Origin: a virus
Virus record (IMG/VR): IMGVR_UViG_3300032286_001364
Location: 1-21,330 of that record
Strand: one strand, 5' to 3'
Length of the DNA stretch: 21,330 nucleotides
Part shown: one piece after another, positions 2 through 18,535 of the stretch
How positions within the stretch are numbered: position 1 is the first letter of the stretch
Layout: the number at the start of each line of letters is the position of its first letter
Notes under the pieces: model-generated
Told to the model about the DNA's origin: nothing
The model's database searches: none
What the model saw: the letters and a program-made list of their open reading frames with translations, nothing else
Program-made: the position numbers and the translations under genes

Positions 2-886
2 AATTATCCACAGAGATACACACTACCACAGGACCAAAGAACATTAAATCCTTTTGAGGGCGGTGAAGACGCTTATGCTACTGCTGCGAACCCAATGCGG
101 TATTCATCCCAGCCAAGTCAACGTCAACAAACACGACCACTGGTCAATAGCGGCTTAACCGCTCGGGACATGGATTTCTATGTAAATAAGATTGGAGATG
201 TTAATGCCGGTTTGGTCCTGTCTAATAGCAAAAAGGGGACAGACATTTTTTCGATGGAGCAGCCGTTTGAATACACATCTGGATACGACATCAAAACAAA
301 AACCTCAACAAAAAGCAGATTCCACGTTGTTCCTGCTGGTTTTTCCAGCGTTCCTATGCCAGATGGAACCAACAAAAGCTTAAGTAACTACGAATTATCT
401 AAGATGTTTAAGGTAAAAACCGTTCCATTTAAGGGCGGTGAAAAAGAGGCAGGAGAATTTAGGGCCGTCCTGCAGAAGTATCAGCAATTTACTGACCAAG
501 CGGAACGCCTTCGGGCAATATACGACAGTAATATTTATCTTGGACCAATGGACCCAGATGAGGACTCGGCTTTAGCTGATTCTCTACAAGAACAGATGAC
601 TCAAACCTTTGTGTTCATAATGAATGGTGCAAAAATGTCCGGTTCTGGTACTTCAAACATGGATATGGCTAAAGCAGAATCAATGCTTCCAAGAAGGTCT
701 GCATTCACATTTACCCACCTAGGTGGAAATGAAATGGCAAAACTTAATATGGCATTAGAAATGGCTAGGGGCAAAATTGATTCTATGGCAGAAAGTAACG
801 GAATGTATTTGCTACAACCAACAGGTGAAGCTAAACCCGGTGCAGGTAAAAAACCACCCGGAACCCAAAAAATTAGAAACCATTAA
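2..886 (+). CDS. 3' part of an unrecognised gene (likely virion-associated), cut by the left edge
   Basis: The reading frame is open from the first complete codon at position 2 to the TAA at 884-886, giving 294 residues of a longer protein. The first in-frame ATG is at 95, but the frame continues cleanly upstream of it and no ribosome binding site precedes it, so it is probably internal. No named domain is recognised. The N-terminal part is rich in Gln, Pro and Asn. The middle (about residues 150-200 of this fragment) is helical and charged. Near the end, an Ala-Glu-x-Met-Leu-Pro segment is followed by a helix, and the tail (last 25 residues) is Gly/Pro/Lys-rich and looks disordered. The stop overlaps the start of the giant gene (TAATG), so the two are probably translationally coupled. 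A virion or DNA-ejection role is inferred only from this position. Confidence 0.75.
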   Translation, partial: NYPQRYTLPQDQRTLNPFEGGEDAYATAANPMRYSSQPSQRQQTRPLVNSGLTARDMDFYVNKIGDVNAGLVLSNSKKGTDIFSMEQPFEYTSGYDIKTKTSTKSRFHVVPAGFSSVPMPDGTNKSLSNYELSKMFKVKTVPFKGGEKEAGEFRAVLQKYQQFTDQAERLRAIYDSNIYLGPMDPDEDSALADSLQEQMTQTFVFIMNGAKMSGSGTSNMDMAKAESMLPRRSAFTFTHLGGNEMAKLNMALEMARGKIDSMAESNGMYLLQPTGEAKPGAGKKPPGTQKIRNH

Positions 887-3800
887 TGGAAAACTCTGAA
901 CAAACCCCCGATTATAATCCAGTAGCTTTAAGAGCTAAACAGATTACTGAAATGGGGCAGTCACTTGACCCCACATACCAAGATTTAAACTTGGTTGCAG
1001 AAGCTCCAAAGCAGCAAACTTACTTAGATTATTTTGCAGCTAATAAAGCAGAACGCCTTGACCTAAATGACCCAAATACAAAAGCAACTTGGGAACAAAT
1101 GATTAAAGAGAGCGAGGAAAGAGTAACAGATTGGAATGAAGTTGCCAGAGAATCTATAAAAATGATTGCCGGTGTTCCTGTTGATTTAATTAAAGGAATA
1201 GCAGAGAATCCAAATCCTTTGGTTGTTGCTGGTTCAACGGCACAAGGTGTAGTAAAGGGTCTTGCGGATTTATGGAACATGGTTACTCAATCTGAAGACC
1301 CATTATCTCCAATATTTCACGTAAGGGCAGCAGCTACAGCTTTAATGACAGGCAAATCTCGTGATTGGAGAGCAGAAGTTGCCCAATGGAACGCAGCAAG
1401 AGAAACAAATTATAATACCCACTTAATGGAAGAAGGTAAAGAGTCCATGGTGGATAGGGTTATGAATTTATCTCCAGAGGAAAGAGCTAGAGTAAATTCG
1501 TACATAAATCCAAAAGTAGCACACGCCATGAGCTTTGTCGGGTTAGAACTTCCTGCAATTGGACGTGCTTTACTTACTTCGGGTGCAAAGAGTGCTGTTG
1601 CAGCTGCAACCGCAAGAACAACATTGAATGTAGAAAAAACTGCTGGACTTGGTGCTGCAATGGCGGCTGGAGCAAAAAGATTTGAAAAGTGGTCGTTGTA
1701 TTCAACTCAAACGATAGCAAGTAAAACGTTATCAGCCACAGGCAAAGTATTGGAATATCCTGCCGCAGCAATTCAGGGTCTTGTTGGAAGAAATATTGAA
1801 AGAGCTGCTGGCTACGCAGGAGTTTCTGATTCTGTAGTTAGAAATGCTGCAGAAACAGCAGTAGCGTTTGGTGGTGAGGTAGATGCCGCTGCGGGTGTTC
1901 AAAGAACTGTTGGCATACTAGGTTCGCTTGGCGTAAGAACCGGCTCTGAACTTGCTGGTGCTTACGGCACAGAATTAGCAAATGCGGCAAAGGGATTAAT
2001 ACCTAATAGCCAATTTGGTTTAACCACCCTTGAAAGAGTTGCCGCAAATCCACTTTTATCACCTACGGCCAAAGCAGCAGCAAAATTTATCAACGTCACC
2101 ATTGACCCAATTTTACAACTTTCAACTGCAACATTAAAGCACTCATATAAAGGGGCATTAGAGTTTGGTATTTTGGGATATTTAAATGACAGAGATAGGG
2201 GTGCAGTAGGAGGTGCCGCCATGGGAATGGTTTGGTCCGGTTATTCTGGTGCACTTAGACATTCATGGTCCGTAATTAATGGAGGTTTTTCACATAGACT
2301 TATTATAGACTCTTTTGATGGTAGTTTTTACAAAAAATTTGGAAGCGTGAATCAAGAAGCAACAGCAGCTTTTAAAACCGTTATTGAAGCAATAGACAAT
2401 CAACACAAAAATGAAAAAATTTCCGCAAACACAAGACAAACAGTTAGGCAAGCCGTTGATATGTTGGGCGATAAACGAAAAAATTTAATTGTAGAGATAA
2501 GTGGAGATTCAAAAACATTACAAGATAAACTTCAAAATAAAGGAGTAAAAGACTATGGTAGATTTGAAGCTGTAGGAAAGGGAAGTTTTCAAGTTGCCGT
2601 TGGTGGTGAAGGCCAAATAATTCCAATTATAACATTAAACCCGAAAAACTTTAGAGCCGCAGACGTCGGACACGAAATATTGGGGCACGTGGCTTCATTT
2701 GTATTAGAAGAATCCGGAAAAATAGGAATATACCATGCTGAATTGTTCGGATATGGTAAAAACAAAGGAATACTTCCTGATTCCGTGATGGCTGATAAAT
2801 TGGCAAAGCGTCATTTGGCTGAAATGTATACAAGTGACGTCAAAATGGCTGAGTATGAAAATGTTTCAGGAAAAAAAGCTTATGACAACAAGGGTAATTT
2901 AAATCCAGAATTTAGGTCTTGGGTAGAGACTAAATCCGCTTCAGAGCTGTCATATTACCGAAAATTATATCAAGATAGAATTGAAGAGTTTAGAAAAGAT
3001 TTTCCAAACAAGCAGGATTATTACACAGCCGGCCAGAACAGTGAGCCAATATTATACGAAAAACATAAACGAGATGAAACATTTCCGGGTGCTAGATGGA
3101 TGTTTGAAGAGCTTGTATCCGGGCATCAAGAGGGCTTGTTTACCTTTACCAACCTTGCGGACAATTTAATTCCAGAAGCAGAAAAGCCAATCAGATATTA
3201 TTTTGAAAGCGTAAGAAACGATTTGTTTGCCAAAAAACTTAGTCAGGTTGAATTATCCGGTACAAGGGTTAATAGAGTGTTCGGTCCGGACGGAACCCCA
3301 CAAGTTCAATTAGAAGTTTTTGATGACGGCAAGTGGCACAAACATGAAGGCATGGATGGATTTGCACAGAAACTTGTAAGAGACGCTATGAATTTAGATA
3401 GCAACAGCATCTACAGAATGTCCCCAGAAAAAATGGCCGTAGAAGCAAAGAAACACGGCAAGGAGTACATGTTTAATCCTGCCGGCAAGGGTGTTACAAT
3501 GAAGGGTGAAAAGGAAAGAAACGAAATTTCTGACGCCATGTCTAAGAAATCAATGGAGATAATTAAAAATCTTCCTGATAATTTAAAAGTAGAAATAGAA
3601 TTAGACGAATTTGAAAACGAAACCGTAGATTTAACAAAGTTAAGCGATGGTGCTTTTAATGCTATTGTTCAGGGCGGTGGAATGGATGCCACGACAGCAG
3701 CAAACGCAAGAGCAATTAGAGACGTAATTAGGTCTTATCACGATAGTGGATTTGCTGCACCAAACGTAATGATTAGTGACTATTGGGGTGCCTCAAAGGA

Positions 3801-6800
3801 AATTGTTAAAGGTGGTTGGCTTGGAAGATTAACAGGTAAAGACGTTCCTGTTACAAGCAGAATGTTCGTTCCGTATGAATTGAAAATTCACAATAAAGTA
3901 AGAGATGCCAACGGAAATCTACTAGCAAAACCAAAAACAACTATGACCGTTACTGCGGTTGATTATTTGGCTATTCACAATAACAAAATTTCAAATTGGA
4001 GCAGACCGGAGGTTAGAAGATTGTTTACCAGCATCGACGAGATGAATGAACAATTCAATAAATACATTATCAACATGATGCAGGACCCATCGGTTCGTGT
4101 GACATCAGAACAATTATTTAAAGCTAAGTACGGTGCAAATGCATCTAAAGTAAGAGACGTCATGTACAACATCTTTGGTGCCGTTATGCGTAAAGATGAA
4201 AGCTACATTAATACTCCGGGCGAAGGAGCTAGAACAAACAAAAGAGGTCCGAACTATCCATATCACTCATTGAGTTTAGATAAATTAGTTAACCTTGAAT
4301 TAACAAGCTCTAAGCCGTTTGGATATCACCACGGTAATTCCTATGAAGGACTTAGAAGAAACCTGTCGACGGAAGGTTTTGAAAGAATGACAAATACCAG
4401 ATACAGAGACATGCAAGGTTACGAAATCTTTGTAAAGGGTAAGAACTTCAAAGTATTTAATCCGTTTGGTCAAGAAATTGGCGTAGTAGATAGCTTTAAA
4501 AGGGCTGCTAAATTAGCCGGAAAACACTTAAAAAAATCAGAAGATGCAGACAGGCTACCAACTCCAGATGATTTTAATGCTAATGCTTTTTTTGGAGGAG
4601 CTGAAGATGTTGTAGAACAAAAGAGAGTTCGTGATAGGTTAAATGAACATTTATCCAAATTTGACTCGAGGGGAATAATGCTGCAAAGCTACGGTCTTGA
4701 TAGAAACGGAAATGTAAGAGAATTCAATTATGAATTAGTAGAACCAAAACTTTTTAGAAGTATTGCCAGAGTTCAGGCAGACGAATTAGACAAACTTCAG
4801 CAAGTTACAGGCAAAAACATGGTCAAAGATGTAAGGTTAAGAAATATACTTAGCACAAAATCACAAAATGAACTATACATGAGCTTCGAATCTGGTGGTG
4901 TTCGTTTAAATTACAACATTGGTAATATTCCTGTAATTTTTGTATCTAAAGGAGTTCACGAAGACAAAAAGTTAAGATTTATAACAGGAAATAATAAAAA
5001 TGACCCGACAATTGCATCATTTACAGAGGCACAATACGTAGATGAAATGCGTCGTGAGGGTAAATTATGGAAACTGCATGTAACAAAAAATGGACCAGCA
5101 TTAATTTTTGATACACATGCCATGAAATCAATGAGCTTAACCGCAGAAGATAAGCATTGGATTGTACAAACACAATTTGCGGCAGAACTTGATTCTATTT
5201 ACAATGGTTCACGAACGGATTCTTTTAGAGGTCCGGTTGCAAGAGATGCAATTACAGCTTCAACTGGAACCTACGGAAGAACGATTTTTAATCACAAATT
5301 ATTTAATGCACTTAAAGATACGGATTTAACCGATTTACAGGGCCACCCACAAGCACTTGAGTTAATAAGAGGTCCAGCAAAACGCGAGGCCATTAAGAAA
5401 GTAAAAGCATGGGCTGCACTTGGAACGACAGAAGATTTATTATTTTTACAATGTTTAGAAGAAAGAACTAAGCTGCTCCAAAAATACGGTGAATACAAAA
5501 TACACAGAGACGCTGAAGGAAAGCCATCAACAATACTTTTACTTCCAGAAAAACATTTTCCAGAGTTACTTCTCAAGAACGATGCCATTTGGAAAGCCTC
5601 AAGAGCTGTCCGCAACTCAAACATTAGCTATCAGATTTTGGAGTTGTGGTCTAGTCACGTAGACCACTTCCAAACACAGACACTATACCAACAAAAGGGG
5701 CTTATTGAATTTGGAAATGTAACCGTAGCTATATCTGGAAAAAATGCCATATCAGGAAAACCACGAACAACATTGATGGTAAATCCGGATTTATTTACTG
5801 ACGGAGCAAATAATGTTTGGTTTGTTCAACATTCAAACACAGCGGTAATTGCTCACGGCTCTTCTGGGACATCTTTAATAGCCTCTTCCAATGGAGCTTT
5901 TGACAAAAATGCAGTAGGCGGATATCTTGGAGACGTACCAAAGGTATTTGGTAAAATAGTTGGAGCCGATGATTACGAAAATGGCGTATACCAATCTGTA
6001 ACGATAAGAGATTTTTTCCGTATGTCTCCAGACAGGTCATTGGATGAACAAATTAAATATTTTGAAAGACCAATTTCAGACGCAATAAGAGAAATAAACC
6101 CACATGCTGGATTCTTTTCAACAAAAGCACACTTGGCTTATTGCGAAATTTTATACAAAAAGTTTTCTGAAACTGATACATTAAAAGGCCAAGACATTCT
6201 TGCGATGAGAGAAAAGGCTTATGCATTTAAATCTGTTGAAACAGAGTTAGCTTGGCTTGAAAAAATTAAATCAGCTTCAATAGAATCTAGAAACGCACAA
6301 GCATATAACGCAAGCAGAGCGGCAATAGCTATGTTAAGAGCTAGAGAAAATTTAACAACAAAGTCTGATTTACCTAAATTCAAACTTAATATTTCAATAG
6401 ATGATTACGTTGAATCTAACTATAATTTAAAATTGTCTGAATTTAATGACACATTCTTTAATTACGTTGGTGTAAGTAGAGAGGGTGAGCTGCCAATGAT
6501 TTATGATTTAATTAATTCTGCCAACGAAGACCCTAGTTTTATGTACGACCCTGCTGCATTAAAGCAATTAAGGTCATACGCAGATAAAGCATCACCATAC
6601 GGAAAACTTGGAACCGAAAGAGCAATGCAATCTGTCATTGGTCTTGAAAAACCACTTGAGGAATCTGGGGATAATTTTGTTAGAAGAATGGCCGAGACTG
6701 GACTTGTTCGTGTTTTAGGAAATGGAAAACATCGTCAAGGTTATGTATTGTTTGAATTATCAGATAAAGATGCATCGTTTACTACAAAGAATAATGGAAG

Positions 6801-9800
6801 ACTTGAATTAACTCCATTTATTAAGTCCGATGACCCACAGAAGGCACTTGATGAATACATGGCTCAATATGGAAATAAGCCATCAACCGGTAAGTATGTT
6901 GGTCCAAAGAATGTCACCCTTGGAGACATATTTAACCACAGTGAGGTTTACAAACACTTCCCAGAGATAAAAGATATTCCAATATTATTTACAGACGGTC
7001 TTGGTGCTTTGGCAGCAAGATATGCAGACCCTGTTACAGGAGAATTAAAATACCACATTGAGTTTGGAATTAGAAACCTTTTGCCGGAAGAAGCGTATAA
7101 GAATGCAACACCTTATGCTGATAAAAAACTTTACCCAAGTTATTTGTACAGAAACCAATTTATTAAAGAACACCCAGCAACAAGCATGATGTTGCATGAG
7201 GTGCAGCATATATTACAATACAAATTTGAACATAAGGCAGAGTTCACATTTATGGGAGCAAAGGAAAAGACTATGCTCCAAAAGAATTTCTTAAGGTATT
7301 TAGGTGCAAGAAATGAAGACTTAAATCTTGATAAACTTGAAAGCGACAACGACGCTCACCAAGTCATTCAAGGTATGATTGAAGACATCAATCAATCTCC
7401 TGTTTACAAAAATTTAGATGCTCACGTTAAACCATTACTCAAAACCTACATTGGTAGAATTGCTGGTGAATTAGCTGAACTTGCGGATGCTGGACTTGTT
7501 TCCGGTGAGCATGCAAAAACTTCATTAGAGTTAATGAAAGAAGTAGATTTAATTAACAGCCCTGAAGATGCACACCGGGTTTACAAATCATTTGAATCCA
7601 TTGTAGGCTTTATTGGCACTCAGCCAGAAGTACAATTGAAAATGGCCCAAATGTATGATGATTTCCACGCAGCAAACAGTGCGTTGGAAATGCACACGGT
7701 ATTAGACCCTGCAAACTTTGGAGCAGACCAACCAACTGTTCACAAGATAGTTTCACTTAGGAGAGCAATAGATTCTTTTGCCAGAGCAAATTATTTTGCT
7801 AAATCGATTGAAGTCCAAGCTAGAGTAACAGAAAAAAGAAGGGGACTAAACAAGAGGGAGTTGTTTGAGCAACCCAGAGTAGATATTCCAGCAGAAGGAA
7901 GCACCTTAGAACTAATTACAAGGATATCAAATTCTTCAGACATAATGAAGATTAAAGATTTTGACGGCAAGGTTGATTCCTTCCCACGAACTACAATGTT
8001 CTCAGTCGGTGATTTAATGGGCGGAGAAGATGCTTCTGATGTAACAAAAAGACTTGGTAAACTTGCATTGGTTAGCTACGTTGCATTAAAAGGCTCAAAA
8101 GAATTTCAAAAACTAGGAAGATTTTTAATTACTCAAAATGGTTGGGAAGTTGATAAAGATGGTAAATTGGTTTTAACAAAGAAAAACTACACAGTTAAGG
8201 GTGATTTTGATAAATTTTACCAAACTCAAAAGGAAGCTGAAGCCGCAGGTATATATGACCCAACTAGCGACACCGGAAACCCCGGACACTCATCATACTC
8301 ATACGGTCAGTACTCAGTAGTAAGAGGAAGCACAGATGGTCTACAATCCACTTACACAATCGATGATATTCTGGCTTTAAGTAACGCAACTATTGAAGCC
8401 GAAATTGGTTTATCAGTCGGCAATAGCGTCGTAGATAATGTATTGCACCATACATTCCCACCAATGATTAAGGGTGATAAGATAATGGAGGCATTAAATA
8501 ACAATGCTTTTAGCCATAGTGCAGAAGCTTATGACTTATCTGGAATTGACCATATTGCCATGGCTATTGGAGATAGGCATGTAACAAAGACAGATTTAGC
8601 TAACCTGATTATGTACTACCACAACAGCTTGGATATTTCCGCTGTTAATGCAGGAGAGTCTGGAGTTGTTCCATCTAAAAGGTCGCTTGGAAGTATTGAT
8701 TTTGATACTATTCCAAGAGAAAGGCTTATTGCAGCGGCAAAAGATACTGTGTTTCCTGACGTGGCAAGCAGACTTAACATAGACACATTTTATCAGACTG
8801 AAAGAGCGGAAATAGGTTTTGGCGTTTATAATTTAGACGGAAGAACTCTTAGTTTTGAATTTAGAAGACCAAGTTGGGTTCCAGAAGAGGTTTACCAAAA
8901 AGTTATTGCAAAGCATTTAGAATCAGAAAATTACAAAAATTTACAAAAAACATTTTTGGGCAGTGATAATTCTAGTAATTCAACCGCTATTAGTCTTGCA
9001 AACAGTTTAAATGAAAGACTAACCAGAAAGCTACTTTTAATAGAACCTGTTGTTAAACAAATGCTCGAAGAGATTAAATCTCAGAGAGAAAATAATTCAA
9101 TTAACAATGATGCTTACAATGCATTCATTGTTGGTCTTTTTGATAAGATGGTTACGGATGCATTGGTTATTCACCCAAGCCAATTCCATGAAACCGGAAA
9201 TAAGCCTAGGGGTCCATTCCAAGAGTCATTTTCATCCGGAAGGGATAATCAAACCATCCCTCCTAGTATGATTCAAAATGTTATCAAGAGAAAGGGCTTG
9301 TCTGGAACCGTTCAAGGAATTGGAGCTACGTATTCCGGTCTTACTATAAAAGGTTCAGAATATGCTGGTATGGGATTCCATACACCTGTACCAATGATTG
9401 GAACTGCTTGGCACGGAACTCCTTTTGATTTCAACGAAGTTTCTAACATTCAAACCTCTTGGTTTGGAACAAGAATTCATCCACAAGGTGACACCGTTCC
9501 GCTTGGTCCATCAGTAGAGTCTGTACCCGAAAGCTTTAGGATGGCAAATCCAGAAAGAGCCGGACAAGTAGAATCACCATTTAGAAAATATTACAATTCC
9601 TTAGATTCAGTAAATAACGGTTTGGTAAAATACGAAACACTGACTCAGTGTGCTTTAAATTTATTACAGGAATACAATGAAAGAATGGAACAAACAAAAG
9701 ATAAGCTTGCAGGCCTAGAAAGAACCCTGTCGTTATACGACACAAATCCAGAAGTATATGCTAATGCCGTTGGAATTAAGATGTCCGAAGTTGATGCAAA

Positions 9801-12800
9801 AAGGCAGTTCCATCTTGATAAAATAGAATCACTTAAACGCAGTTTAATAAGCGACAATTATGAACATAACATGGCTGCTATTATTAGAGATTTGTTTTCT
9901 TTAGGAAACCAAAGATTCCTTTCTGGTTTATCTGGAGATGTTGGACCATCACATGGCAAAATGTTAAGAATGCATGCGGTTGGAGGCTCTAGACTGAATC
10001 AAATAGCTTTTGCACCGCAATACGGTGTACAAACTTACCAGATTGGCGGTAAAACCATTTTTGATTTAGACCACATTTTCTGCAGCTTAGAAGATGTAAG
10101 CACATTAGATACAAGAACTGGATTTGGTAGTGGAATACCTTTAAAAATTAGAAAAGTACAGGCCGATAGCTCCATGTTGTTTGACGCACAAATAAGAACG
10201 ATGATGTTCGCAACACATGATTACATTAACAGAACCGGTGAGGAAATGACTCCTGAGTTGCTTTCAATTACTCCAACACAAAGGCATTTACCTTTCTTTG
10301 AATTACTAAGCTCAATTACACCAGAAACAGGCGGTCAGACTGTAACTTTTGCAACTCCAAAAAACATGTCGATAGCCAGCGGAAAAGCATTAGTTGAAAT
10401 TGGTTTATTGGCACATGCTGTAAGACTAGGAAAATCTAAAGGCGTAAGATATTCGGAGCTTATTACGTCTATGGTTCAAAGCCAAAGCTTGAACTTCATG
10501 CAAGGAGCTGATGGTTATTTAAATAATACGGCTAACTGGGCCGGACTTGGAACAAATTTTGCTGGTGAGGCTCGTTTTATTACATCAGAAATGAACAGGG
10601 ATTTTAGTTTAAATGTTCAACACCAATCTATTGGCGTAGCTTCTTCAGTTGTATTGAGACACCTTTTGGCAAGAAATTCAATATTCTCACACAAAGAAAA
10701 ATTATTGTACGGCACACTTCCCGGCATTGATACACCGGCATATTTGACGGCTGATATCATGGGTAAAACCGGGGAGTTTAATAAACCATTTGCAAAATTA
10801 GCACCAATAGAACTTGGAATTATTAAAGATTTTATCGACCAGTTACCTGAGAAAACAAAAGCTTACATTGCTTCTGAACTTGGTTCTTCCAATAATGCAG
10901 TAACAATAATTTCATCTCTTGGAGTAATAAACTCACTTAAGTTAATTAAGAGACAACAAGAAAACCCTGCAGCGTTTGAAGGAACAATAAGACACCAAAT
11001 TCATATAGATTATGCAAATGCCAGAAACGGATTAAGTCTTCAAGACTCTGTTGATTATGCTGCATCACATTCATTACACACTAAAATTGCTACCGTAAAA
11101 GAAGGCGAAAGAGGAAATCTTGGATTAGCTGAAGGCCATGAAATTGTTGATATAATGAAAAGCGTCGTAGAAAGTCCTGAATTTTGGCATGGTTATTTTG
11201 CTTCACTGTCTACACACAAACAGATTGAGATTCCTAATTTACCATCACCTTATTCTTTCTTAGACAGAAGGCATAGAAGTAATTTGATGGCAAAAACATC
11301 ATATTCCGATTTAGGAAAACATGATTTTAATATTTTTGATAATGGACCAAATACTGTAGCAAGACAAGAAACATATAAGGGATTGGTTGAGTCGAATAGT
11401 TCGATTTTACGATTTGGTGCTGATTTAGAAAGCCATAGATATTACGATACTATTCATGGATTTAGCCAAAAATCTAGCATTGGTTTGGCTAATACCGGTT
11501 TAAGAATTGAAGATAGTATAAATTTCCCAAATAGACGTGCGTTTTCAAATGAAGACCCGACAACACACATAGGCTCTATTGAACATGGCGTAATATTTCA
11601 TGATGCAACACAGACACCAGAACCTGTTTCACTTGAGGATTATTTTTACAATGTAGATAGTAACATTAACTCATCTTCTGAGTCTTCTAATCACGTTGAT
11701 TATGGAGACATGGTTCAAATTGAGGATGGAAGCAAGAAAAGATTAATGGTAGATGACAACGAAGGAAGAATAGTTTTAAACGAAACTGGCTCTGAGAAAA
11801 CTCCCGTACAAATTCCAATTCTTAAAACAAACATTGGTAAATCATTAAGAGATGAAATTATTAGACATCAATTAGCTTTATCGGCCAGAGCTTATGGAGC
11901 TACAGAAATTTCTTCTATTGCTGCGAGACACCCACTTTCAATAAGCGTACCAACATTATTACCGGGTCTTACTGAGTCTGCAAAAATTGATTATTTAAGA
12001 CAAAGCCACGTAAACTCAGCGTTTCAGGGGTATACTACATATACCGCTGATATGATGGGACGAAATGACATTCCAAGAGGCGGCTTGAGCTGGACTAGAT
12101 TAGATGACGGAAGGTTAATGATTAATTACACTCCAACAATCGATTTAAATCAGTTGTTTAAAACAATTAACAAAGAACAGCAAATGGGCCTGCCATTTAA
12201 ATCTGGTCTTGGTTACGACACTGCGACTGGAACATTAATTCCGCAATCATCAGCAAGAATGCTTTGGTTTTCAAAAGAATTAAGCACAGTTCTTAAAAAT
12301 GGAAATTATGCAGATGTAGCTAGGGTTTTAAATGGAAGCATTCATTTTGACCAACAAGTTACCGGTCAACACGCAAAAGCTTTTAGAGTAATGGCACGTG
12401 ACATGTCTGAAGGTGACCCATTATCAGCACAAGTAGCAAAATACAGACTAGAAGAGGGCAACCCATTATCGGCAGATGGATTAGACAAAGGAAGAAACAA
12501 CTTAGCTAATCTTTTAAATCCAAATAACCCTGTTATGTTTGGATTAACACGTGAATCCATTGAGTTAATTGATGAACCGTTCCACCAGCAGTTCTTAATG
12601 GACGCAATGAGCCAACATAATAACCACACGTTTAGTTATTTTACACACATTCTTCCAAAGGAATGCACCAAAGAAGATATTCATGAAGTAATTTTAGCAT
12701 TACACACAGCCCACATGGAATTAAATCCAGCAAATATGGCATATAATGAAGCCGGATTCACTTCATCAATTCATTCAACCGGCTTCAATAGTTTTACTCA

Positions 12801-15800
12801 TCAAAGTTCAGCAAATCATGCTTCAATGTACAGAACCTCACTTGCACAATGGGAAAAAAGGCAAGTGGTTGAAAGAAGCAAGAAAGCTCCATTGCCTCAC
12901 CCGGAACTAGATAGTAGCGAGAACACATCAAGACAAGGTACACTTAGCCATTCAAATTTAAGAAAGCTTGCATCAACAAACCCAGACTTTGCGGCACACG
13001 TTGAAGAAATGGCATCAAGGGCTGTTGCTGAACCAACTGGTTATTCTGTACCGGCAGCAGAAAGAAAATTAAAATTAAACGGAGATAAAACAGAAGCAAT
13101 TAAACTTTTGTTCCCCGGTAGAGATGATTTGCTAAAGTATGCTTGGGATGCCGGAAAGTCTTCAAAAATAGACATATTCGAAAAGAGTGACAAATCTGGA
13201 TTTATCCTGAGTCATAATTCTATTACCGGAATGAATGCAGACGGAACTCCGGAAACAGGAAGAGTAACTAAAACTTTCAGAACGAGAAAAGAAGCAGATG
13301 CCTATGCAACTTCACTTCAAAGCCAAGGTGGTGTAGCAGGCATACCCAACGCATTGTTTGGACAAAAGGGATACAGAATGGAGAAACTTAATGTTCCTGA
13401 AGCCAAAGGAGAGTCTGCTGTTAATGTAGATATTACTCCTGTTGTTTCTTTAATTTCACATGGTGAGGGAAATGCCAGAACAACAATTAGCAAAAACTTA
13501 TTTAAGGTTGGTAATTTAGATGGCATATACACCAAAAAACAAGCCACAGAAATAGCCAAAATGCTTAAATCTCAGGATGTGATTACCGCACCGGCACCGG
13601 AAGTAAGACGCAACATTATGTTGTCATCCGAAGGACTTGAAAATGCTAAAGAATTAGAACGTGTTGTTCGAGCCAGAAGTAATTTTGGTGTAGCCGGTTC
13701 ACCATTTAGTTTTTCATCTAATTTAATGAAAGCTATTGCCACCGGTGCATTAGGCAGAGACACATCTGTTGTAGCTTATACAGGCACAGAATGGTTCAAA
13801 ATTTTAAAGGCAAAGGGCGTAAGTAAGGGCGAAATGAGAGTTACAGGTGTTGCCGCAATGCTTCACAACATTAAAGACCATCACTTAACAAGAGATGAAT
13901 TTGCACAATTTGCTGCAGCGATGTATCCGACATTTTATCAAACAATCGACAGAAGAGATATTCAGCAAACAAACACAGCTCGAGTTGCAAGAAGAATTAC
14001 AGACCCACAAGCTGCAATTAACAGAATTGTACACGAACACGCCAGAGACGTCGGCTTGATTGAGCAAAATCTAAGAACAAAAATTAGCTCAGAAAACAAC
14101 CCACTAGCTAAACAGGCTTATACAACCATTTTAGATAATATCAGAAGCGTGATGATTAGTTCTTTGGCAGAAATATATGGCTACGAAGCTACATCAAAGT
14201 TGTTTGAAGACAAAAGTATCTCGGTTGGAGAAATTATTTCTAAGCTAAAATGGGAACCTGCTGTTAAAAATGAGGGCACTCCTCCAATAACCGCTGGGTC
14301 ATTTTGGCTTTTCCGACATAATTTAGCAAAATCATATTCAGATGTAATGCTTTCAAATTTGGCAAACTCAGTGGGTATTGATTTAAAAGAGTTTGAATTA
14401 ACGGTAGATGACTTTAACCATAGCAGAACGGACAACGCAATGGAGCCGATTGTTGGACAAGATGGATATGTAGACAGACTGGGAGTAGGAGATGCTGCCA
14501 GAGTTGGTGAATTTGGTTATGGTGTAGTCAAAAGAACGGTTTTCAGAGACTATGCATCTGGATACGGTGACCCATCGGTTACAATATTAAATGCAGGATT
14601 TAACGATGCTACTGAAATAACAAGAATAGATAATCTTATTACGAAACTCAAATCTCAGTTAAAAGAAACAACTGATGGACCAACTCAAGAAAAATTGGCA
14701 AAAATGATTGAGTCTGCAAGCAACGTTAAGGCCGTAAGAAAAAGTTTTAGCATTAAAGACATTGAAGGTAATCTTCCAAACCACCAACACTTTGCATGGA
14801 TGAGAAGAGGAATATGGGAAATTGGACACCTTAGATATACCTCTGGCGTGGCAACGTTGCACACTCAAATGGGAGATGGACCCCTTGCGTTAGCAGATGC
14901 ATTTAGCAAAAATATGGCAGAACAAGAAATTGTTCCTACAATGATAATGGAAGAAACCCAATCCGACAAATATCAAAAAAGAGTTTTTGGTAAAAGAAAT
15001 GCCAAAGAGGTACTTCCTTCCACTGCCGAAGAATCTGCTGCGGTTGCAAGATTGCCTGAAATAACAAGATTACAAAGAGACATTGAATTTGCTCAAAACA
15101 AACGTTCTGATTTAATTAGAGAAACAAGAACTTTAAATAAACCGGGAATATGGAATGATGCGTTAATTAGTGCTGCAATGATGAAAGCAAGAATGCAAGG
15201 TGCACACATCACAACTAAATATGCATTGTTGAAGAGCTACGAAAAAATTATATCAGGCCAAGAATGGGGTAATAATAGTTACAAAGGACCTGAAAAATTA
15301 CTTGAGGGCCTGATAGTAAAAACCGGAGAAAAAATTAAAATACCAAAAGAAGTACAAGAAAGGTTTGGTTTACCAGCAGAAATTGAAGATTTCAATATTG
15401 ATGAAAATCATATGTATGCCGGTTGGCTTTACAAAGAGCTTGCTGAGGGATATTTGCACGATGGCGTTGGAACTTATTTTGGAGCCAATCCGCAAGTCCA
15501 ATTAGTTACACAATTATTTGGAGATAAACTTCCTTTTGTTGAACTGCCTCTGGGTACTGAAGATTATTATGGCTCTACAAGGTCTTTTAGAATGGATTCA
15601 CAGGGTCTAATGACACTAAAATTGTTAAAAACAGCTTCAATGTTTGACGAAAATCTTGCTGCTGTAATTCCTAGAATACTTTCAGATGTAGAAGCAAAGG
15701 AATCTTTATTTGGTATAAATTATGATTTTGATGCACTTGGTAAACGCTCAATTCAAATTCTTGAAACGAAGTTAGCTATGATAGATAGCGGACAAGCTAG

Positions 15801-18234
15801 GGTTTCAAATCCCAAAGCAAGAGCTTTTCTAGGAAGGGTTATTGCAGATTTGAAAGCCATGGACCAAATGGACGGAAGAAAACTCGTATACCCAGAAAGA
15901 AGTATGCACATTATTAGTGAGCAAACAGAAGGATGGTGGGGCGGAGACAACAGATATTCTGAACCAACTGCACTTGCAGAATTAAAAACTATGGAAGGTT
16001 TAACAAAACAAAGAATATTTGTTATTGGTGACGTTTCTGAATGCTACGATAGAAGTATTGATACTAGGGCAGCCGATAACACAATAAGAACACCAGAAAA
16101 ATACCAAGTTTTCTTAGCAAGATTAATGAGCAATAAGAAAATCGCACATGCTTTTGGAAACTCAAACTCACCGTTATCGACTCAAGGAACTGTTAGAATG
16201 AGCTACATAGATGCATTAAAAATGCAGACAGAAATTTACGCAGCACTTCATGATATGAGCGTTGACGATTATTTAGCTCAATCAACGCACCCACTTAACG
16301 AAGCCATAAAAGATGGATTGGGGTTAAACGGTGCAGACAAAATCTTAGGTGGTTGGGATAAGATTTTAGGAACAGAAGAAGTAAGAGAAGGAAACACACC
16401 ATTCCCGGCATTACAAGCACCAACAGACTTTAATGATGCTAGTTTTGGCAGCAGCAGAATAGCTCCTCCGGCAGCACAGTTAAATTCAAAAACTGTTCTT
16501 GGAAGATATTTGGAAATAACATTCCCATCGGTTATAAATATGTACAAGTCTAAGAAATTTATTTCCGAACAAAATGCCAATGTAGATAAATTAGCAATTT
16601 TACAAAAAGAACTTAACATTGAATTAGCTACGCCTGACGAACTTCATAATACAATGCCGGACGTTTTACCTCTAGGCGAAGAAGGTGCCTACAGAGGCGT
16701 TCAATCTTCGTTTGCGATTATGAAAGCAATTCAAGAAAGACAAACTGCTGTTTCATACATTGATGGTAGATATCACATAAACAGATACAACAACACGGAT
16801 GATATCAAAATCATGTACAACGTTGGACCCGGACGAGGTGGATTTGTGGGCAGTCGTGCTTCAATGAACGAAGTAGTTGCCACATATATTATTAGTGAGG
16901 CACAGAAAAACATGAACCACGGAGATTTTTTTGGAAGAATGATGCGTGGCGAGTTAAGGGATAACGATATACATAATGGTAAATTTACGCACAACGGCAT
17001 AGAAGCAGATTTACAAACACATTATGAAGCAGCCGTTGAACCAATATTAAGCAGTTTCCTAATTTTTAATAACGATAGTCACCTTGCAACTAAGAGAGCT
17101 GGGTTTGAAATTATTAGAACAATTTTATTACGTTCTAAAACCGAGCGAAATATTGAAACCGAAATTCATGACAACCTGTCTATGGCAGAAGTCGCAAGAG
17201 TTTCAAAAATACATAAAGGTGCCGTTTCTTTGGTTGTAAATGTTCCGTATGGAAGAGCCAATGGATATGCTGCAAACTATGGATTACCTAGCTGGTCAGC
17301 AGATATTAGTTTAGCCGGACAAAGTGTTGCGGCAAGAAACCGCATGAAGCATGACCTTTATACAAGACCTGTTGTTGAGCATTCTAATGGTGTGTTTAAC
17401 ATTTTAGACCCTAAAACAGGAAAATTACTTGTTGGTGATTTAACAGACCCGGCTATGATTAAAGAAAGGGTTGCACAATTATCTAAATACGAAGGTGCCG
17501 TTCCTGTAGTTAGTAGCTGGCTTGGCACGTTTAAACCAGCTGGAATGTACTTTGTAAATTCACACCTGTTTAATAATAAGGACATAACAACAGGAAAAAA
17601 TCTCGGCATGGGTTCATCGCTTGACGCTCTTTTAAGCGAGCCCGGTGCAGACCCAATTTCAAGTACATACAATAGAATGGTTCAAAACCTTGGACAAACC
17701 GTTTTGACTGCAGACTTGTATCGTCAAACAGAAACATCCATACAACGTAATCCGCAAATTACTCCAGAAGGACAAGCAACAGGAACTGCAGACATAGATA
17801 TGGCAGACAGCGAACAGAGCCACAGCAGACGTGAAGGGTTTTATGGCCCAGCAGTAACAGGAAGACTAACAAACAATCCCGGAAGCAGAGAAAGAAACAG
17901 TGCTGATACAGACCTTAAACCGGATATGGCAGCTACGCTTTATGCAATGGGCGTTACTAAACGTTCTAGTTCAACAGAAATTGCAGCTGCCATTGTGCAA
18001 TCAACTGGATTTATTGCTCCATCGTTTATCGTAAAACCAAAGTTCCCAACAGAAGCACACAAATTTGAAATGCGTAAAAAGATTATTGAAGGCATTCCTT
18101 TAATGTCGGTTGGAGATTTTAAAAACCCTAATATTAAAACTAAAAGGGCCATGAGCGATTACAAGTGGCTAACAAACAGACTTAACACCAGACCAATGCA
18201 AAGAAACAATGACGATGAAACCACCAACAGATGA
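886..18234 (+). CDS. giant large polyvalent protein, 5,782 aa, probably virion-packaged and ejected
   Basis: A single uninterrupted frame starts with the ATG that overlaps the upstream TAA by one base and ends with TGA inside the start of the holin-like gene. Recognisable parts in order are: an Ala/Gly-rich, partly hydrophobic region (about residues 195-465); an HEILGH metallopeptidase-like motif at 596-601 with a Glu-Glu pair at 741-742; a zincin domain with HEVQH at 2104-2108 and Ala-Gly-Glu at 2193-2195; an HGTPxDF motif at 2843 recalling polyvalent-protein ADP-ribosyltransferases; and a polyvalent module at about 4268-4800 with the EExQSD signature at 4689-4694. No helicase Walker A, methyltransferase or RNA-polymerase motif was seen. 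Known large polyvalent proteins of phages and conjugative elements are delivered with DNA and act in the recipient; delivery here is inferred. The protein is much longer than well-known examples such as N4 virion RNA polymerase (about 3,500 aa). Arginine codons are mainly AGA. Most of the chain has no recognised fold. Confidence 0.93.
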   Translation: MENSEQTPDYNPVALRAKQITEMGQSLDPTYQDLNLVAEAPKQQTYLDYFAANKAERLDLNDPNTKATWEQMIKESEERVTDWNEVARESIKMIAGVPVDLIKGIAENPNPLVVAGSTAQGVVKGLADLWNMVTQSEDPLSPIFHVRAAATALMTGKSRDWRAEVAQWNAARETNYNTHLMEEGKESMVDRVMNLSPEERARVNSYINPKVAHAMSFVGLELPAIGRALLTSGAKSAVAAATARTTLNVEKTAGLGAAMAAGAKRFEKWSLYSTQTIASKTLSATGKVLEYPAAAIQGLVGRNIERAAGYAGVSDSVVRNAAETAVAFGGEVDAAAGVQRTVGILGSLGVRTGSELAGAYGTELANAAKGLIPNSQFGLTTLERVAANPLLSPTAKAAAKFINVTIDPILQLSTATLKHSYKGALEFGILGYLNDRDRGAVGGAAMGMVWSGYSGALRHSWSVINGGFSHRLIIDSFDGSFYKKFGSVNQEATAAFKTVIEAIDNQHKNEKISANTRQTVRQAVDMLGDKRKNLIVEISGDSKTLQDKLQNKGVKDYGRFEAVGKGSFQVAVGGEGQIIPIITLNPKNFRAADVGHEILGHVASFVLEESGKIGIYHAELFGYGKNKGILPDSVMADKLAKRHLAEMYTSDVKMAEYENVSGKKAYDNKGNLNPEFRSWVETKSASELSYYRKLYQDRIEEFRKDFPNKQDYYTAGQNSEPILYEKHKRDETFPGARWMFEELVSGHQEGLFTFTNLADNLIPEAEKPIRYYFESVRNDLFAKKLSQVELSGTRVNRVFGPDGTPQVQLEVFDDGKWHKHEGMDGFAQKLVRDAMNLDSNSIYRMSPEKMAVEAKKHGKEYMFNPAGKGVTMKGEKERNEISDAMSKKSMEIIKNLPDNLKVEIELDEFENETVDLTKLSDGAFNAIVQGGGMDATTAANARAIRDVIRSYHDSGFAAPNVMISDYWGASKEIVKGGWLGRLTGKDVPVTSRMFVPYELKIHNKVRDANGNLLAKPKTTMTVTAVDYLAIHNNKISNWSRPEVRRLFTSIDEMNEQFNKYIINMMQDPSVRVTSEQLFKAKYGANASKVRDVMYNIFGAVMRKDESYINTPGEGARTNKRGPNYPYHSLSLDKLVNLELTSSKPFGYHHGNSYEGLRRNLSTEGFERMTNTRYRDMQGYEIFVKGKNFKVFNPFGQEIGVVDSFKRAAKLAGKHLKKSEDADRLPTPDDFNANAFFGGAEDVVEQKRVRDRLNEHLSKFDSRGIMLQSYGLDRNGNVREFNYELVEPKLFRSIARVQADELDKLQQVTGKNMVKDVRLRNILSTKSQNELYMSFESGGVRLNYNIGNIPVIFVSKGVHEDKKLRFITGNNKNDPTIASFTEAQYVDEMRREGKLWKLHVTKNGPALIFDTHAMKSMSLTAEDKHWIVQTQFAAELDSIYNGSRTDSFRGPVARDAITASTGTYGRTIFNHKLFNALKDTDLTDLQGHPQALELIRGPAKREAIKKVKAWAALGTTEDLLFLQCLEERTKLLQKYGEYKIHRDAEGKPSTILLLPEKHFPELLLKNDAIWKASRAVRNSNISYQILELWSSHVDHFQTQTLYQQKGLIEFGNVTVAISGKNAISGKPRTTLMVNPDLFTDGANNVWFVQHSNTAVIAHGSSGTSLIASSNGAFDKNAVGGYLGDVPKVFGKIVGADDYENGVYQSVTIRDFFRMSPDRSLDEQIKYFERPISDAIREINPHAGFFSTKAHLAYCEILYKKFSETDTLKGQDILAMREKAYAFKSVETELAWLEKIKSASIESRNAQAYNASRAAIAMLRARENLTTKSDLPKFKLNISIDDYVESNYNLKLSEFNDTFFNYVGVSREGELPMIYDLINSANEDPSFMYDPAALKQLRSYADKASPYGKLGTERAMQSVIGLEKPLEESGDNFVRRMAETGLVRVLGNGKHRQGYVLFELSDKDASFTTKNNGRLELTPFIKSDDPQKALDEYMAQYGNKPSTGKYVGPKNVTLGDIFNHSEVYKHFPEIKDIPILFTDGLGALAARYADPVTGELKYHIEFGIRNLLPEEAYKNATPYADKKLYPSYLYRNQFIKEHPATSMMLHEVQHILQYKFEHKAEFTFMGAKEKTMLQKNFLRYLGARNEDLNLDKLESDNDAHQVIQGMIEDINQSPVYKNLDAHVKPLLKTYIGRIAGELAELADAGLVSGEHAKTSLELMKEVDLINSPEDAHRVYKSFESIVGFIGTQPEVQLKMAQMYDDFHAANSALEMHTVLDPANFGADQPTVHKIVSLRRAIDSFARANYFAKSIEVQARVTEKRRGLNKRELFEQPRVDIPAEGSTLELITRISNSSDIMKIKDFDGKVDSFPRTTMFSVGDLMGGEDASDVTKRLGKLALVSYVALKGSKEFQKLGRFLITQNGWEVDKDGKLVLTKKNYTVKGDFDKFYQTQKEAEAAGIYDPTSDTGNPGHSSYSYGQYSVVRGSTDGLQSTYTIDDILALSNATIEAEIGLSVGNSVVDNVLHHTFPPMIKGDKIMEALNNNAFSHSAEAYDLSGIDHIAMAIGDRHVTKTDLANLIMYYHNSLDISAVNAGESGVVPSKRSLGSIDFDTIPRERLIAAAKDTVFPDVASRLNIDTFYQTERAEIGFGVYNLDGRTLSFEFRRPSWVPEEVYQKVIAKHLESENYKNLQKTFLGSDNSSNSTAISLANSLNERLTRKLLLIEPVVKQMLEEIKSQRENNSINNDAYNAFIVGLFDKMVTDALVIHPSQFHETGNKPRGPFQESFSSGRDNQTIPPSMIQNVIKRKGLSGTVQGIGATYSGLTIKGSEYAGMGFHTPVPMIGTAWHGTPFDFNEVSNIQTSWFGTRIHPQGDTVPLGPSVESVPESFRMANPERAGQVESPFRKYYNSLDSVNNGLVKYETLTQCALNLLQEYNERMEQTKDKLAGLERTLSLYDTNPEVYANAVGIKMSEVDAKRQFHLDKIESLKRSLISDNYEHNMAAIIRDLFSLGNQRFLSGLSGDVGPSHGKMLRMHAVGGSRLNQIAFAPQYGVQTYQIGGKTIFDLDHIFCSLEDVSTLDTRTGFGSGIPLKIRKVQADSSMLFDAQIRTMMFATHDYINRTGEEMTPELLSITPTQRHLPFFELLSSITPETGGQTVTFATPKNMSIASGKALVEIGLLAHAVRLGKSKGVRYSELITSMVQSQSLNFMQGADGYLNNTANWAGLGTNFAGEARFITSEMNRDFSLNVQHQSIGVASSVVLRHLLARNSIFSHKEKLLYGTLPGIDTPAYLTADIMGKTGEFNKPFAKLAPIELGIIKDFIDQLPEKTKAYIASELGSSNNAVTIISSLGVINSLKLIKRQQENPAAFEGTIRHQIHIDYANARNGLSLQDSVDYAASHSLHTKIATVKEGERGNLGLAEGHEIVDIMKSVVESPEFWHGYFASLSTHKQIEIPNLPSPYSFLDRRHRSNLMAKTSYSDLGKHDFNIFDNGPNTVARQETYKGLVESNSSILRFGADLESHRYYDTIHGFSQKSSIGLANTGLRIEDSINFPNRRAFSNEDPTTHIGSIEHGVIFHDATQTPEPVSLEDYFYNVDSNINSSSESSNHVDYGDMVQIEDGSKKRLMVDDNEGRIVLNETGSEKTPVQIPILKTNIGKSLRDEIIRHQLALSARAYGATEISSIAARHPLSISVPTLLPGLTESAKIDYLRQSHVNSAFQGYTTYTADMMGRNDIPRGGLSWTRLDDGRLMINYTPTIDLNQLFKTINKEQQMGLPFKSGLGYDTATGTLIPQSSARMLWFSKELSTVLKNGNYADVARVLNGSIHFDQQVTGQHAKAFRVMARDMSEGDPLSAQVAKYRLEEGNPLSADGLDKGRNNLANLLNPNNPVMFGLTRESIELIDEPFHQQFLMDAMSQHNNHTFSYFTHILPKECTKEDIHEVILALHTAHMELNPANMAYNEAGFTSSIHSTGFNSFTHQSSANHASMYRTSLAQWEKRQVVERSKKAPLPHPELDSSENTSRQGTLSHSNLRKLASTNPDFAAHVEEMASRAVAEPTGYSVPAAERKLKLNGDKTEAIKLLFPGRDDLLKYAWDAGKSSKIDIFEKSDKSGFILSHNSITGMNADGTPETGRVTKTFRTRKEADAYATSLQSQGGVAGIPNALFGQKGYRMEKLNVPEAKGESAVNVDITPVVSLISHGEGNARTTISKNLFKVGNLDGIYTKKQATEIAKMLKSQDVITAPAPEVRRNIMLSSEGLENAKELERVVRARSNFGVAGSPFSFSSNLMKAIATGALGRDTSVVAYTGTEWFKILKAKGVSKGEMRVTGVAAMLHNIKDHHLTRDEFAQFAAAMYPTFYQTIDRRDIQQTNTARVARRITDPQAAINRIVHEHARDVGLIEQNLRTKISSENNPLAKQAYTTILDNIRSVMISSLAEIYGYEATSKLFEDKSISVGEIISKLKWEPAVKNEGTPPITAGSFWLFRHNLAKSYSDVMLSNLANSVGIDLKEFELTVDDFNHSRTDNAMEPIVGQDGYVDRLGVGDAARVGEFGYGVVKRTVFRDYASGYGDPSVTILNAGFNDATEITRIDNLITKLKSQLKETTDGPTQEKLAKMIESASNVKAVRKSFSIKDIEGNLPNHQHFAWMRRGIWEIGHLRYTSGVATLHTQMGDGPLALADAFSKNMAEQEIVPTMIMEETQSDKYQKRVFGKRNAKEVLPSTAEESAAVARLPEITRLQRDIEFAQNKRSDLIRETRTLNKPGIWNDALISAAMMKARMQGAHITTKYALLKSYEKIISGQEWGNNSYKGPEKLLEGLIVKTGEKIKIPKEVQERFGLPAEIEDFNIDENHMYAGWLYKELAEGYLHDGVGTYFGANPQVQLVTQLFGDKLPFVELPLGTEDYYGSTRSFRMDSQGLMTLKLLKTASMFDENLAAVIPRILSDVEAKESLFGINYDFDALGKRSIQILETKLAMIDSGQARVSNPKARAFLGRVIADLKAMDQMDGRKLVYPERSMHIISEQTEGWWGGDNRYSEPTALAELKTMEGLTKQRIFVIGDVSECYDRSIDTRAADNTIRTPEKYQVFLARLMSNKKIAHAFGNSNSPLSTQGTVRMSYIDALKMQTEIYAALHDMSVDDYLAQSTHPLNEAIKDGLGLNGADKILGGWDKILGTEEVREGNTPFPALQAPTDFNDASFGSSRIAPPAAQLNSKTVLGRYLEITFPSVINMYKSKKFISEQNANVDKLAILQKELNIELATPDELHNTMPDVLPLGEEGAYRGVQSSFAIMKAIQERQTAVSYIDGRYHINRYNNTDDIKIMYNVGPGRGGFVGSRASMNEVVATYIISEAQKNMNHGDFFGRMMRGELRDNDIHNGKFTHNGIEADLQTHYEAAVEPILSSFLIFNNDSHLATKRAGFEIIRTILLRSKTERNIETEIHDNLSMAEVARVSKIHKGAVSLVVNVPYGRANGYAANYGLPSWSADISLAGQSVAARNRMKHDLYTRPVVEHSNGVFNILDPKTGKLLVGDLTDPAMIKERVAQLSKYEGAVPVVSSWLGTFKPAGMYFVNSHLFNNKDITTGKNLGMGSSLDALLSEPGADPISSTYNRMVQNLGQTVLTADLYRQTETSIQRNPQITPEGQATGTADIDMADSEQSHSRREGFYGPAVTGRLTNNPGSRERNSADTDLKPDMAATLYAMGVTKRSSSTEIAAAIVQSTGFIAPSFIVKPKFPTEAHKFEMRKKIIEGIPLMSVGDFKNPNIKTKRAMSDYKWLTNRLNTRPMQRNNDDETTNR
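1468..2280 (+). other. Ala/Gly-rich, partly hydrophobic N-terminal region of the giant protein
   Basis: This covers about residues 195-465 of the giant protein. Long stretches of Ala, Gly, Val and Ser with few charges alternate with short charged helices. The region ends in a glycine-zipper-like segment (about residues 430-463) that begins Gly-Tyr-Leu-Asn-Asp-Arg and carries Gly-Gly-Ala-Ala-Met-Gly. Similar segments occur in phage internal virion and ejection proteins and are thought to insert into or form channels in the host envelope. That function is inferred here from composition only. Confidence 0.5.
2479..3129 (+). other. HEILGH metallopeptidase-like domain of the giant protein
   Basis: Residues about 532-748 contain a predicted edge strand (Ile-Ile-Pro-Ile-Ile-Thr-Leu-Asn-Pro) followed by a helix with His596-Glu597-Ile-Leu-Gly-His601. 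This layout is typical of zincin peptidases, but the spacing is HExxxH rather than the usual HExxH. The exact HExxGH form is known in the dipeptidyl peptidase III (M49) family, whose third ligand lies in a Glu-Glu motif downstream. Here Glu741-Glu742 in a Phe-Glu-Glu-Leu-Val-Ser context could serve, although 140 residues away. Zinc binding and activity are inference; the motif could also be a degenerate zincin. Confidence 0.5.
6898..7485 (+). other. HEVQH zincin domain (polyvalent-protein type) of the giant protein
   Basis: Residues about 2005-2200 follow the layout of the metallopeptidase domain often found in phage large polyvalent proteins, the LPD23-type domain as I recall it. It opens with Thr2011-Leu-Gly-Asp-Ile-Phe-Asn-His, followed by Tyr-Lys-His-Phe-Pro-Glu-Ile-Lys-Asp-Ile-Pro, and then a strand-rich section. 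The active-site helix carries His2104-Glu2105-Val-Gln-His2108. A second helix with Tyr2188 and Ala2193-Gly2194-Glu2195 matches the family's third-ligand pattern (Tyr-x4-Ala-Gly-Glu). All expected catalytic residues are therefore present, so an active zinc peptidase is plausible. Its substrate, which could be host proteins or the giant protein itself, is unknown. Confidence 0.72.
9391..9510 (+). other. possible ADP-ribosyltransferase-like HGTPxDF motif of the giant protein
   Basis: Residues about 2836-2875 contain Ala-Trp-His2843-Gly-Thr-Pro-Phe-Asp-Phe-Asn, close to the first NAD-binding strand (Y/W-H-G-[ST]-P-x-D-F) of the ADP-ribosyltransferase domains seen in phage polyvalent proteins. A Trp-Phe-Gly-Thr follows about 17 residues later, but the long Gly-rich Tyr-Phe segment and the catalytic Glu of active enzymes cannot be placed. 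It may be a truncated or diverged domain, or a chance match. Confidence 0.3.
13687..15285 (+). other. polyvalent-protein module with EExQSD signature in the giant protein
   Basis: Residues about 4268-4800 show, in the usual order, four landmarks of a module common in giant phage proteins. First comes a helical segment Thr-Glu-Trp4303-Phe-Lys followed by Gly-Val-Ser-Lys-Gly-Glu-Met and a Leu-Thr-Arg-Asp-Glu helix. Next is an Arg-Asp-Tyr-Ala-Ser-Gly strand region. Then comes Gly4647-His-Leu-Arg-Tyr-Thr leading to Met-Glu4689-Glu-Thr-Gln4692-Ser-Asp4694. Last is a Trp4756-Asn-Asp-Ala-Leu helix. The corresponding canonical strings are HVRF, EEIQSD and WHELALK. The conserved acidic and Gln residues suggest an enzyme, but its reaction is not known to me. 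A long insertion separates the His strand from the EExQSD strand. Confidence 0.7.
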
Positions 18235-18535
18235 TTTAAGTAACATCGTACAAAGCATGGAAGACTTCCGCAAAGGGGGTTGGCTTGTAGCTTTGCTTGG
18301 TGGTGCCGGTGTAATAGCACGTATGCTTCTGACCGACAGAAACAGTCCATTAAGCGTTTGGATTAGAAAAACCATTGCCGGCTCTATTATTGGAGTTCTG
18401 GCATACTTTGCATTATGGGGTCAGCCGATTGACGGAATTTACAAAGCTGTTATCTTTTCAGTATCCGGTGCAATCGCACCAGAGGTTTTTGAAATGATTT
18501 TAAACAAATTTAGAAAGAAGATAGAAGGTGAATAA
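18209..18535 (+). CDS. putative phage holin, three membrane segments
   Basis: This 108-residue protein has three hydrophobic segments: about 25-44 (Trp-Leu-Val-Ala-Leu-Leu-Gly-Gly-Ala-Gly), 50-71 and 77-98. A short charged N-terminus and a Lys/Arg-rich C-terminal end flank them. Size and layout fit small three-segment holins, which sit in the inner membrane and open it to release or activate the endolysin at lysis. The start is either ATG 18209 or ATG 18215; both lie inside the end of the giant gene (26- or 20-base overlap), and neither has a strong ribosome binding site, so translation may depend on the upstream gene. It overlaps the following gene by eight bases. No endolysin is visible in this window. 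The family assignment rests on topology and position rather than a diagnostic motif. Confidence 0.65.
   Translation: MTMKPPTDDLSNIVQSMEDFRKGGWLVALLGGAGVIARMLLTDRNSPLSVWIRKTIAGSIIGVLAYFALWGQPIDGIYKAVIFSVSGAIAPEVFEMILNKFRKKIEGE

What the first reader, a model, noticed from the sequence alone, without database searches (positions are those of the whole stretch)
886..18234. One uninterrupted 17.3-kb gene encoding a 5,782-aa polyvalent phage protein
A single frame without stop occupies most of the window. It carries several enzyme-like modules known from phage large polyvalent proteins, while thousands of residues match nothing I recognise. The length is extreme for a bacteriophage protein. Coupling to an upstream gene of likely virion type and a following lysis cassette suggests it is made late and packaged. 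The unrecognised regions between about residues 750-2000 and 2900-4260 are the best places to look for new effector domains.
Basis: partly seen in the sequence, partly recalled or inferred. Interest (0 to 1): 0.8.

Follow-up and report, generated by a model that had tools for sequence, protein, structure and literature searches.

The report
Giant, probably injected phage protein
An uncultured phage, probably short-tailed, spends 17.3 kb on a single 5,782-residue protein that matches no described family and that, judging by its place among the virion genes and its near-absence of cysteine, is probably packed in the particle and injected into the host at infection.

Summary
One frame, 886-18234, is open for 5,782 aa. 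A second uncultured-phage contig carries the same gene complete: 5,748 aa, 60% identical end to end, with the same start and stop overlaps. Assembly error is excluded in practice.

No piece of either copy matches Pfam, PHROGs, NCBIfam, PDB sequences or 50,697 phage genomes. The "enzyme modules" are conserved motifs only: HEILGH (596), HEVQH (2104), EETQSD (4689). Their kinship to large polyvalent proteins (LPPs) is not statistically settled. The ART-like "HGTP" is lost in the relative.

The best evidence for injection comes from composition. The giant has 6 cysteines against about 58 expected. LPPs show 0.15 per 1,000 residues against 10.0 in other proteins of the same contigs. Established ejected proteins of T7, P22 and N4 have none or one. 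The gene follows tail genes and Cys-free genes and precedes a holin-like gene.

Length is not unprecedented: LPPs of 6,028 and 6,102 aa turned up.

Verdict: real; a new variant of the ejected giant phage protein; activities unknown.

The parts
886..18234 (+). Giant gene, 5,782 aa, 643 kDa, pI 6.6, 6 Cys
   Evidence: complete 60%-identical relative
2..886 (+). Upstream gene (5' end cut by the contig end), 0 Cys in 294 aa; stop overlaps the giant's ATG (TAATG). No family match; 67% identical relative is 328 aa
2671..2688 (+). HEILGH motif (residues 596-601), HEXXXH zincin type, HEIFSH in the relative; candidate third ligand in a conserved ARWMFEE stretch near residue 739
   Evidence: HEXXXH is a described LPP metallopeptidase variant, PMC5512222
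7195..7209 (+). HEVQH motif (residues 2104-2108), HEXXH zincin type, inside the 18-residue invariant block PATSMMLHEVQHILQYKF
14950..14967 (+). EETQSD motif (residues 4689-4694), aligns with the EEIQSDW domain of LPPs
   Evidence: scan-wide E about 0.01, equal to reversed/shuffled controls
9409..9426 (+). ART-like look-alike WHGTPF (residues 2842-2847); His not conserved (WFGTPF in the relative)
18209..18535 (+). Holin-like gene, 108 aa, hydrophobic segments; 96% identical in the relative
18528..18959 (+). Lipoprotein with several hydrophobic segments (LSGC lipobox), lysis-associated by position
19073..19147 (-). tRNA-Arg(TCT), matching the AGA/AGG preference of the giant gene (253 of 300 Arg codons)

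Best explanation
The gene encodes a giant internal virion (ejection) protein, probably of a short-tailed phage, of the polyvalent-protein kind. It is made late with the tail and internal proteins, packed in the head, and passed through the tail into the host with or ahead of the DNA. Passing through the tail extended would favour loss of cysteine. In or after transit, one or both zincin-like sites may cut the chain into working pieces. SHOWN: the gene, its conservation, its late-gene context, the cysteine depletion, the conserved motifs. INFERRED: packaging, ejection, self-cleavage, and any effector activity.
For: Context: the relative has an SU10-adaptor-like gene (PF24175 E 2e-4, below the curated cut-off), a homologue of the head-closure gene of phage C75C1 (E 1e-9), then five consecutive Cys-free genes (g to k), then the giant, then a holin-like gene. 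C75C1 carries a Cys-free 2,769-aa gene two genes after its head-closure gene. Composition: 6 Cys in 5,782 aa against ~58 expected at the density of other ORFs (Poisson 4e-18; 2e-9 at a stricter density of 6 per 1,000). Calibration: 35 non-redundant LPPs have 20 Cys in 108,685 aa, lower than other ORFs of the same contig in 32 of 33 contigs; T7 gp15/gp16, P22 gp7/gp16/gp20 and N4 gp50 have 0. The lack of Cys in N4-type virion RNA polymerases and its suggested link to injection are published (PMC2784036, PMC3715699, PMC3915230). Motifs: HEXXXH, HEVQH and EETQSD are conserved in the relative.
Against: Six cysteines is more than typical LPPs or ejected proteins have, and four are conserved in the relative. 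About 25% of non-LPP ORFs of 500 aa or more in the control contigs are as Cys-poor, so the signature is not specific, though length makes it stronger. No LPP domain is detected, whereas two of three control LPPs matched several Pfam families. No significant sequence similarity to known ejection proteins. Tail type is inferred: portal and terminase were seen on neither contig.
Confidence: 0.72

Rival explanations
1. A giant exterior or structural virion protein (fibre, adhesin or scaffold-like) that stays on or in the particle and is not ejected.
For: Late position beside tail genes; no recognisable enzyme; Cys-poor composition is also found in some capsid and needle proteins, e.g. N4 gp56 and P22 gp26.
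Against: No repeats or duplication, no fibre or adhesin family match; the relative has a separate gene (b) whose end matches a tail protein of another phage. The long exterior protein of N4 (gp65, 1,382 aa) has 11 Cys.
Confidence: 0.15
2. An N4-like virion RNA polymerase relative: ejected and used to transcribe early genes.
For: Same scale (N4 gp50 is 3,500 aa), late-region position, Cys-poor.
Against: No T7-type motif B found, no similarity to N4 gp50, no RNA-polymerase family match.
Confidence: 0.04
3. A host-takeover protein made inside the cell after infection and never packaged.
For: Large size, unknown domains.
Against: Lies in the late strand-coherent operon with tail and holin-like genes, overlapping both neighbours; replication genes are on the other strand.
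Confidence: 0.07

Closest known systems
Phage large polyvalent proteins (Iyer et al. 2017, PMC5512222)
   Same: Giant chain in a late-gene context; HEXXH and HEXXXH zincin-type motifs; EExQSD motif; strong cysteine depletion
   Different: No LPD, helicase, methylase, ART or other described LPP domain detected; sequence otherwise unmatched
N4 virion RNA polymerase gp50
   Same: Giant late-region protein near tail genes, Cys-free; packaged and injected in N4
   Different: No polymerase motifs and no similarity; the giant is 1.65 times longer
T7 gp14-gp16 and P22 gp7/gp16/gp20 ejection proteins
   Same: Encoded after adaptor/nozzle-type genes; Cys-free or nearly so
   Different: Four to about thirty times smaller; no significant sequence similarity
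Phage C75C1 (OQ984151) CDS0001, 2,769 aa
   Same: Two genes after a head-closure gene homologous to that of the relative; 0 Cys; Erf/SSB/DnaB genes on the opposite strand
   Different: Half the length; no significant similarity to the giant

Membership tests
Phage large polyvalent protein | Two or more recognisable domains of unrelated activity in one chain | tested here: inconclusive
   No domain by Pfam, PHROGs, NCBIfam; only motifs
Phage large polyvalent protein | Described LPP domain (LPD37, LPD38 and others) above threshold | tested here: not met
   None in either copy; two of three control LPPs matched; LPD38 absent from the relative's contig
Phage large polyvalent protein | Zincin-like metallopeptidase | tested here: inconclusive
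   HEXXXH and HEXXH conserved; about 0.24 of each expected by chance; profile comparison weak; fold not obtained
Phage large polyvalent protein | Gene among late virion genes | tested here: met
Ejected virion protein | Cysteine depletion (empirical, calibrated here) | tested here: met
   6 in 5,782 aa; weaker than in typical members
Ejected virion protein | Present in virions and transferred to the cell | not testable with these tools
   needs proteomics
N4-like virion RNA polymerase | T7-type polymerase motifs and similarity to gp50 | tested here: not met
   no motif B match; no similarity to gp50

The most novel reading that the evidence does not exclude
The giant is a new family of ejected phage protein whose ~5,800 residues consist almost wholly of undescribed domains. 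More generally, near-absence of cysteine marks proteins that phages inject, from N4, T7 and P22 to giant LPPs, and can help recognise injected effectors from sequence alone.
Probability: 0.45. Interest if true: 0.72.

Novelty: new variant of a known kind. Interest (0 to 1): 0.55.

Why it matters
If ejected, this is one of the largest proteins passed through a phage tail, and its sequence is new from end to end, so it is a concentrated source of undescribed domains acting at the start of infection. The cysteine signature, known for N4-type RNA polymerases, is here measured across LPPs (about 70-fold depletion against neighbouring genes) and gives a cheap sequence test for injection that proteomics can check.

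Tried and rejected
Family scans whole and in pieces: nothing above noise. tblastn against phages with both halves: nothing. PDB sequence searches: nothing. Three alignment-based viral scans found only the one relative; single-sequence queries from the giant missed even that one, so rarity is not proven. Genome scan: nothing. AlphaFold of residues 1881-3080 and 4001-5200 with two sequences: mean pLDDT about 32 both times, so no fold search was made. Profile search of giant windows against 2,832 LPP-contig ORFs put the EEIQSDW domain first (E ~0.01), but reversed and shuffled controls reached the same E: not counted as proof. hhalign with LPP motif profiles: right sites for the motifs, weak scores. 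ART reading of 'HGTP' rejected: histidine not conserved. N4-like polymerase rejected on motifs and similarity. Length as the novelty rejected: larger LPPs exist.

Full report
WHAT IS THERE. The window is a whole linear IMG/VR contig (G000). The frame 886-18234 is open for 5,782 aa. Two short ORFs follow on the same strand (18209-18535, 18528-18959), then a tRNA-Arg(TCT) and, on the other strand, an Erf-type annealing protein (Pfam ERF E 5e-18), small ORFs and a DnaC-type helicase loader. So late genes run on the + strand and replication genes on the - strand, meeting at the tRNA.

IS IT REAL. The upstream gene led to one relative, contig 3300010885_053937. The rest of that contig, fetched, holds the giant complete: 5,748 aa, 60% identical from first to last residue. 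Codon-position differences (0.296/0.215/0.497) show selection on the protein. Both phages keep the TAATG overlap with the upstream gene and the 26-nt overlap with the holin-like gene. A chimera or missed stop would not recur in a second, separately assembled contig with this pattern. Identity runs from about 33% (residues 601-700, 1301-1400) to 84% (2401-2500). The longest invariant blocks are 3040-3070, 2406-2433 and 5501-5522; these are natural targets for new domains.

WHAT DATABASES SAY. Nothing. Pfam, PHROGs and NCBIfam give no match above noise for the two overlapping halves, nor Pfam for 500-700-residue pieces of either copy, nor PHROGs for pieces of the relative. PDB sequences: nothing. 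tblastn against 50,697 phage records: nothing. By contrast, two of three control LPPs (4,046 and 4,643 aa) matched four and seven Pfam families, among them LPD38, LPD37 and helicase domains; the third, of 745 aa, matched none.

MOTIFS. HEILGH at 596 (HEIFSH in the relative), HEVQH at 2104 and EETQSD at 4689 are conserved. HEXXH-type zincins are the commonest domain of polyvalent proteins, and HEXXXH is a described variant (PMC5512222). LPPs fetched here show HEVLGH, HEMFGH and HEVVGH in comparable surroundings, and the giant has a conserved ARWMFEE stretch where those proteins have AAEEVLA; this last reading is by eye. By composition 0.24 HEXXH and 0.0037 EExQSD are expected in this chain. Profile comparisons find the motif sites but are weak, and the best window search (E ~0.01) is matched by reversed and shuffled controls. 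I treat kinship with LPP domains as plausible, not shown. The ART-like 'HGTP' is FGTP in the relative and is dropped. Two AlphaFold runs with two-sequence alignments failed (pLDDT about 32).

CONTEXT. In the relative the genes before the giant include an SU10-adaptor-like gene, gene b whose end matches a tail protein of a siphovirus contig (37%), gene e homologous to the head-closure gene of phage C75C1, and five Cys-free genes g to k. The genes after it are holin-like and a lipoprotein. The siphovirus contig L099 carries homologues of this pair after its tail gene; there the first matches a PHROG holin (E 2.5e-4) and the second weakly an endolysin profile (E 0.003). SU10 releases five kinds of ejection protein from its head (PMC9509320). 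C75C1 (39.5 kb) has a Cys-free 2,769-aa gene two genes after its head-closure gene. No portal or terminase was seen on either contig, so the short-tailed type is inferred.

CYSTEINE. The giant has 6 Cys, 1.04 per 1,000; its relative has 9. ORFs of 300 aa or more in 80 LPP contigs, LPPs aside, have 10.0 per 1,000; the LPPs have 0.145, and 87.5% have none. After redundancy removal, 35 LPPs carry 20 Cys in 108,685 aa and are lower than their contig's other ORFs in 32 of 33 cases; Trp, Phe and Tyr are not depleted, His is halved. Ejected proteins: T7 gp15 and gp16, P22 gp7, gp16 and gp20, and N4 gp50 have 0, as do N4 gp51 and gp52; T7 gp14 and gp6.7 have 1 each (which proteins are ejected is from the record notes and my own knowledge, and is least certain for N4 gp51/gp52). 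Most other virion proteins there have several, but P22 gp26 and the N4 capsid protein also have 0. Authors working on N4-like phages noted the lack of Cys in the virion RNA polymerase and linked it to passage into the cell. I found no paper extending this to LPPs, but the library is partial and few searches were made. For the giant, about 58 Cys would be expected (Poisson 4e-18; 2e-9 at 6 per 1,000). About a quarter of other ORFs of 500 aa or more are as poor, some perhaps also internal virion proteins. The signature supports ejection but is weaker than in typical LPPs, and four of the six Cys are conserved.

LENGTH. Two LPPs of 6,028 and 6,102 aa, and one of 5,357, were completed here from other contigs (lengths are stop to stop). 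The finding is among the largest but is not a record.

CONCLUSION. A real, conserved giant gene of a kind known in outline (ejected giant phage proteins), with sequence new throughout. Packaging and injection are likely; enzyme content is open.

Noticed in passing
L012-L091, L092-L094: Cysteine is depleted about 70-fold in large polyvalent proteins against other ORFs of the same phage contigs; ejected proteins of T7, P22 and N4 share this.
   Followed up: yes
18209-18959 against L003:1-895: The holin-like and lipoprotein genes are 96% and 92% identical between the two phages while the giant is 60%; fourfold sites differ 7/43 and 24/54 against 687/1320. The end of the operon looks exchanged or far more constrained.
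   Followed up: partly
L003, about 320-600 (minus strand): The relative has a ~90-residue acidic ORF inserted between the holin-like and lipoprotein genes that the window lacks.
   Followed up: no
19073-19147: tRNA-Arg(TCT); 253 of 300 Arg codons of the giant are AGA/AGG.
   Followed up: partly
19904-20077 (-): 57-aa ORF (MPLIKTRQLWIKLEEPDIKLLTKYARAEGISRAALMRIIIMKFIRQ...) that looks by eye like a ribbon-helix-helix regulator.
   Followed up: no
L095/L031, L096/L043: Other phage contigs carry LPPs of 6,028 and 6,102 aa with 1-2 Cys.
   Followed up: partly
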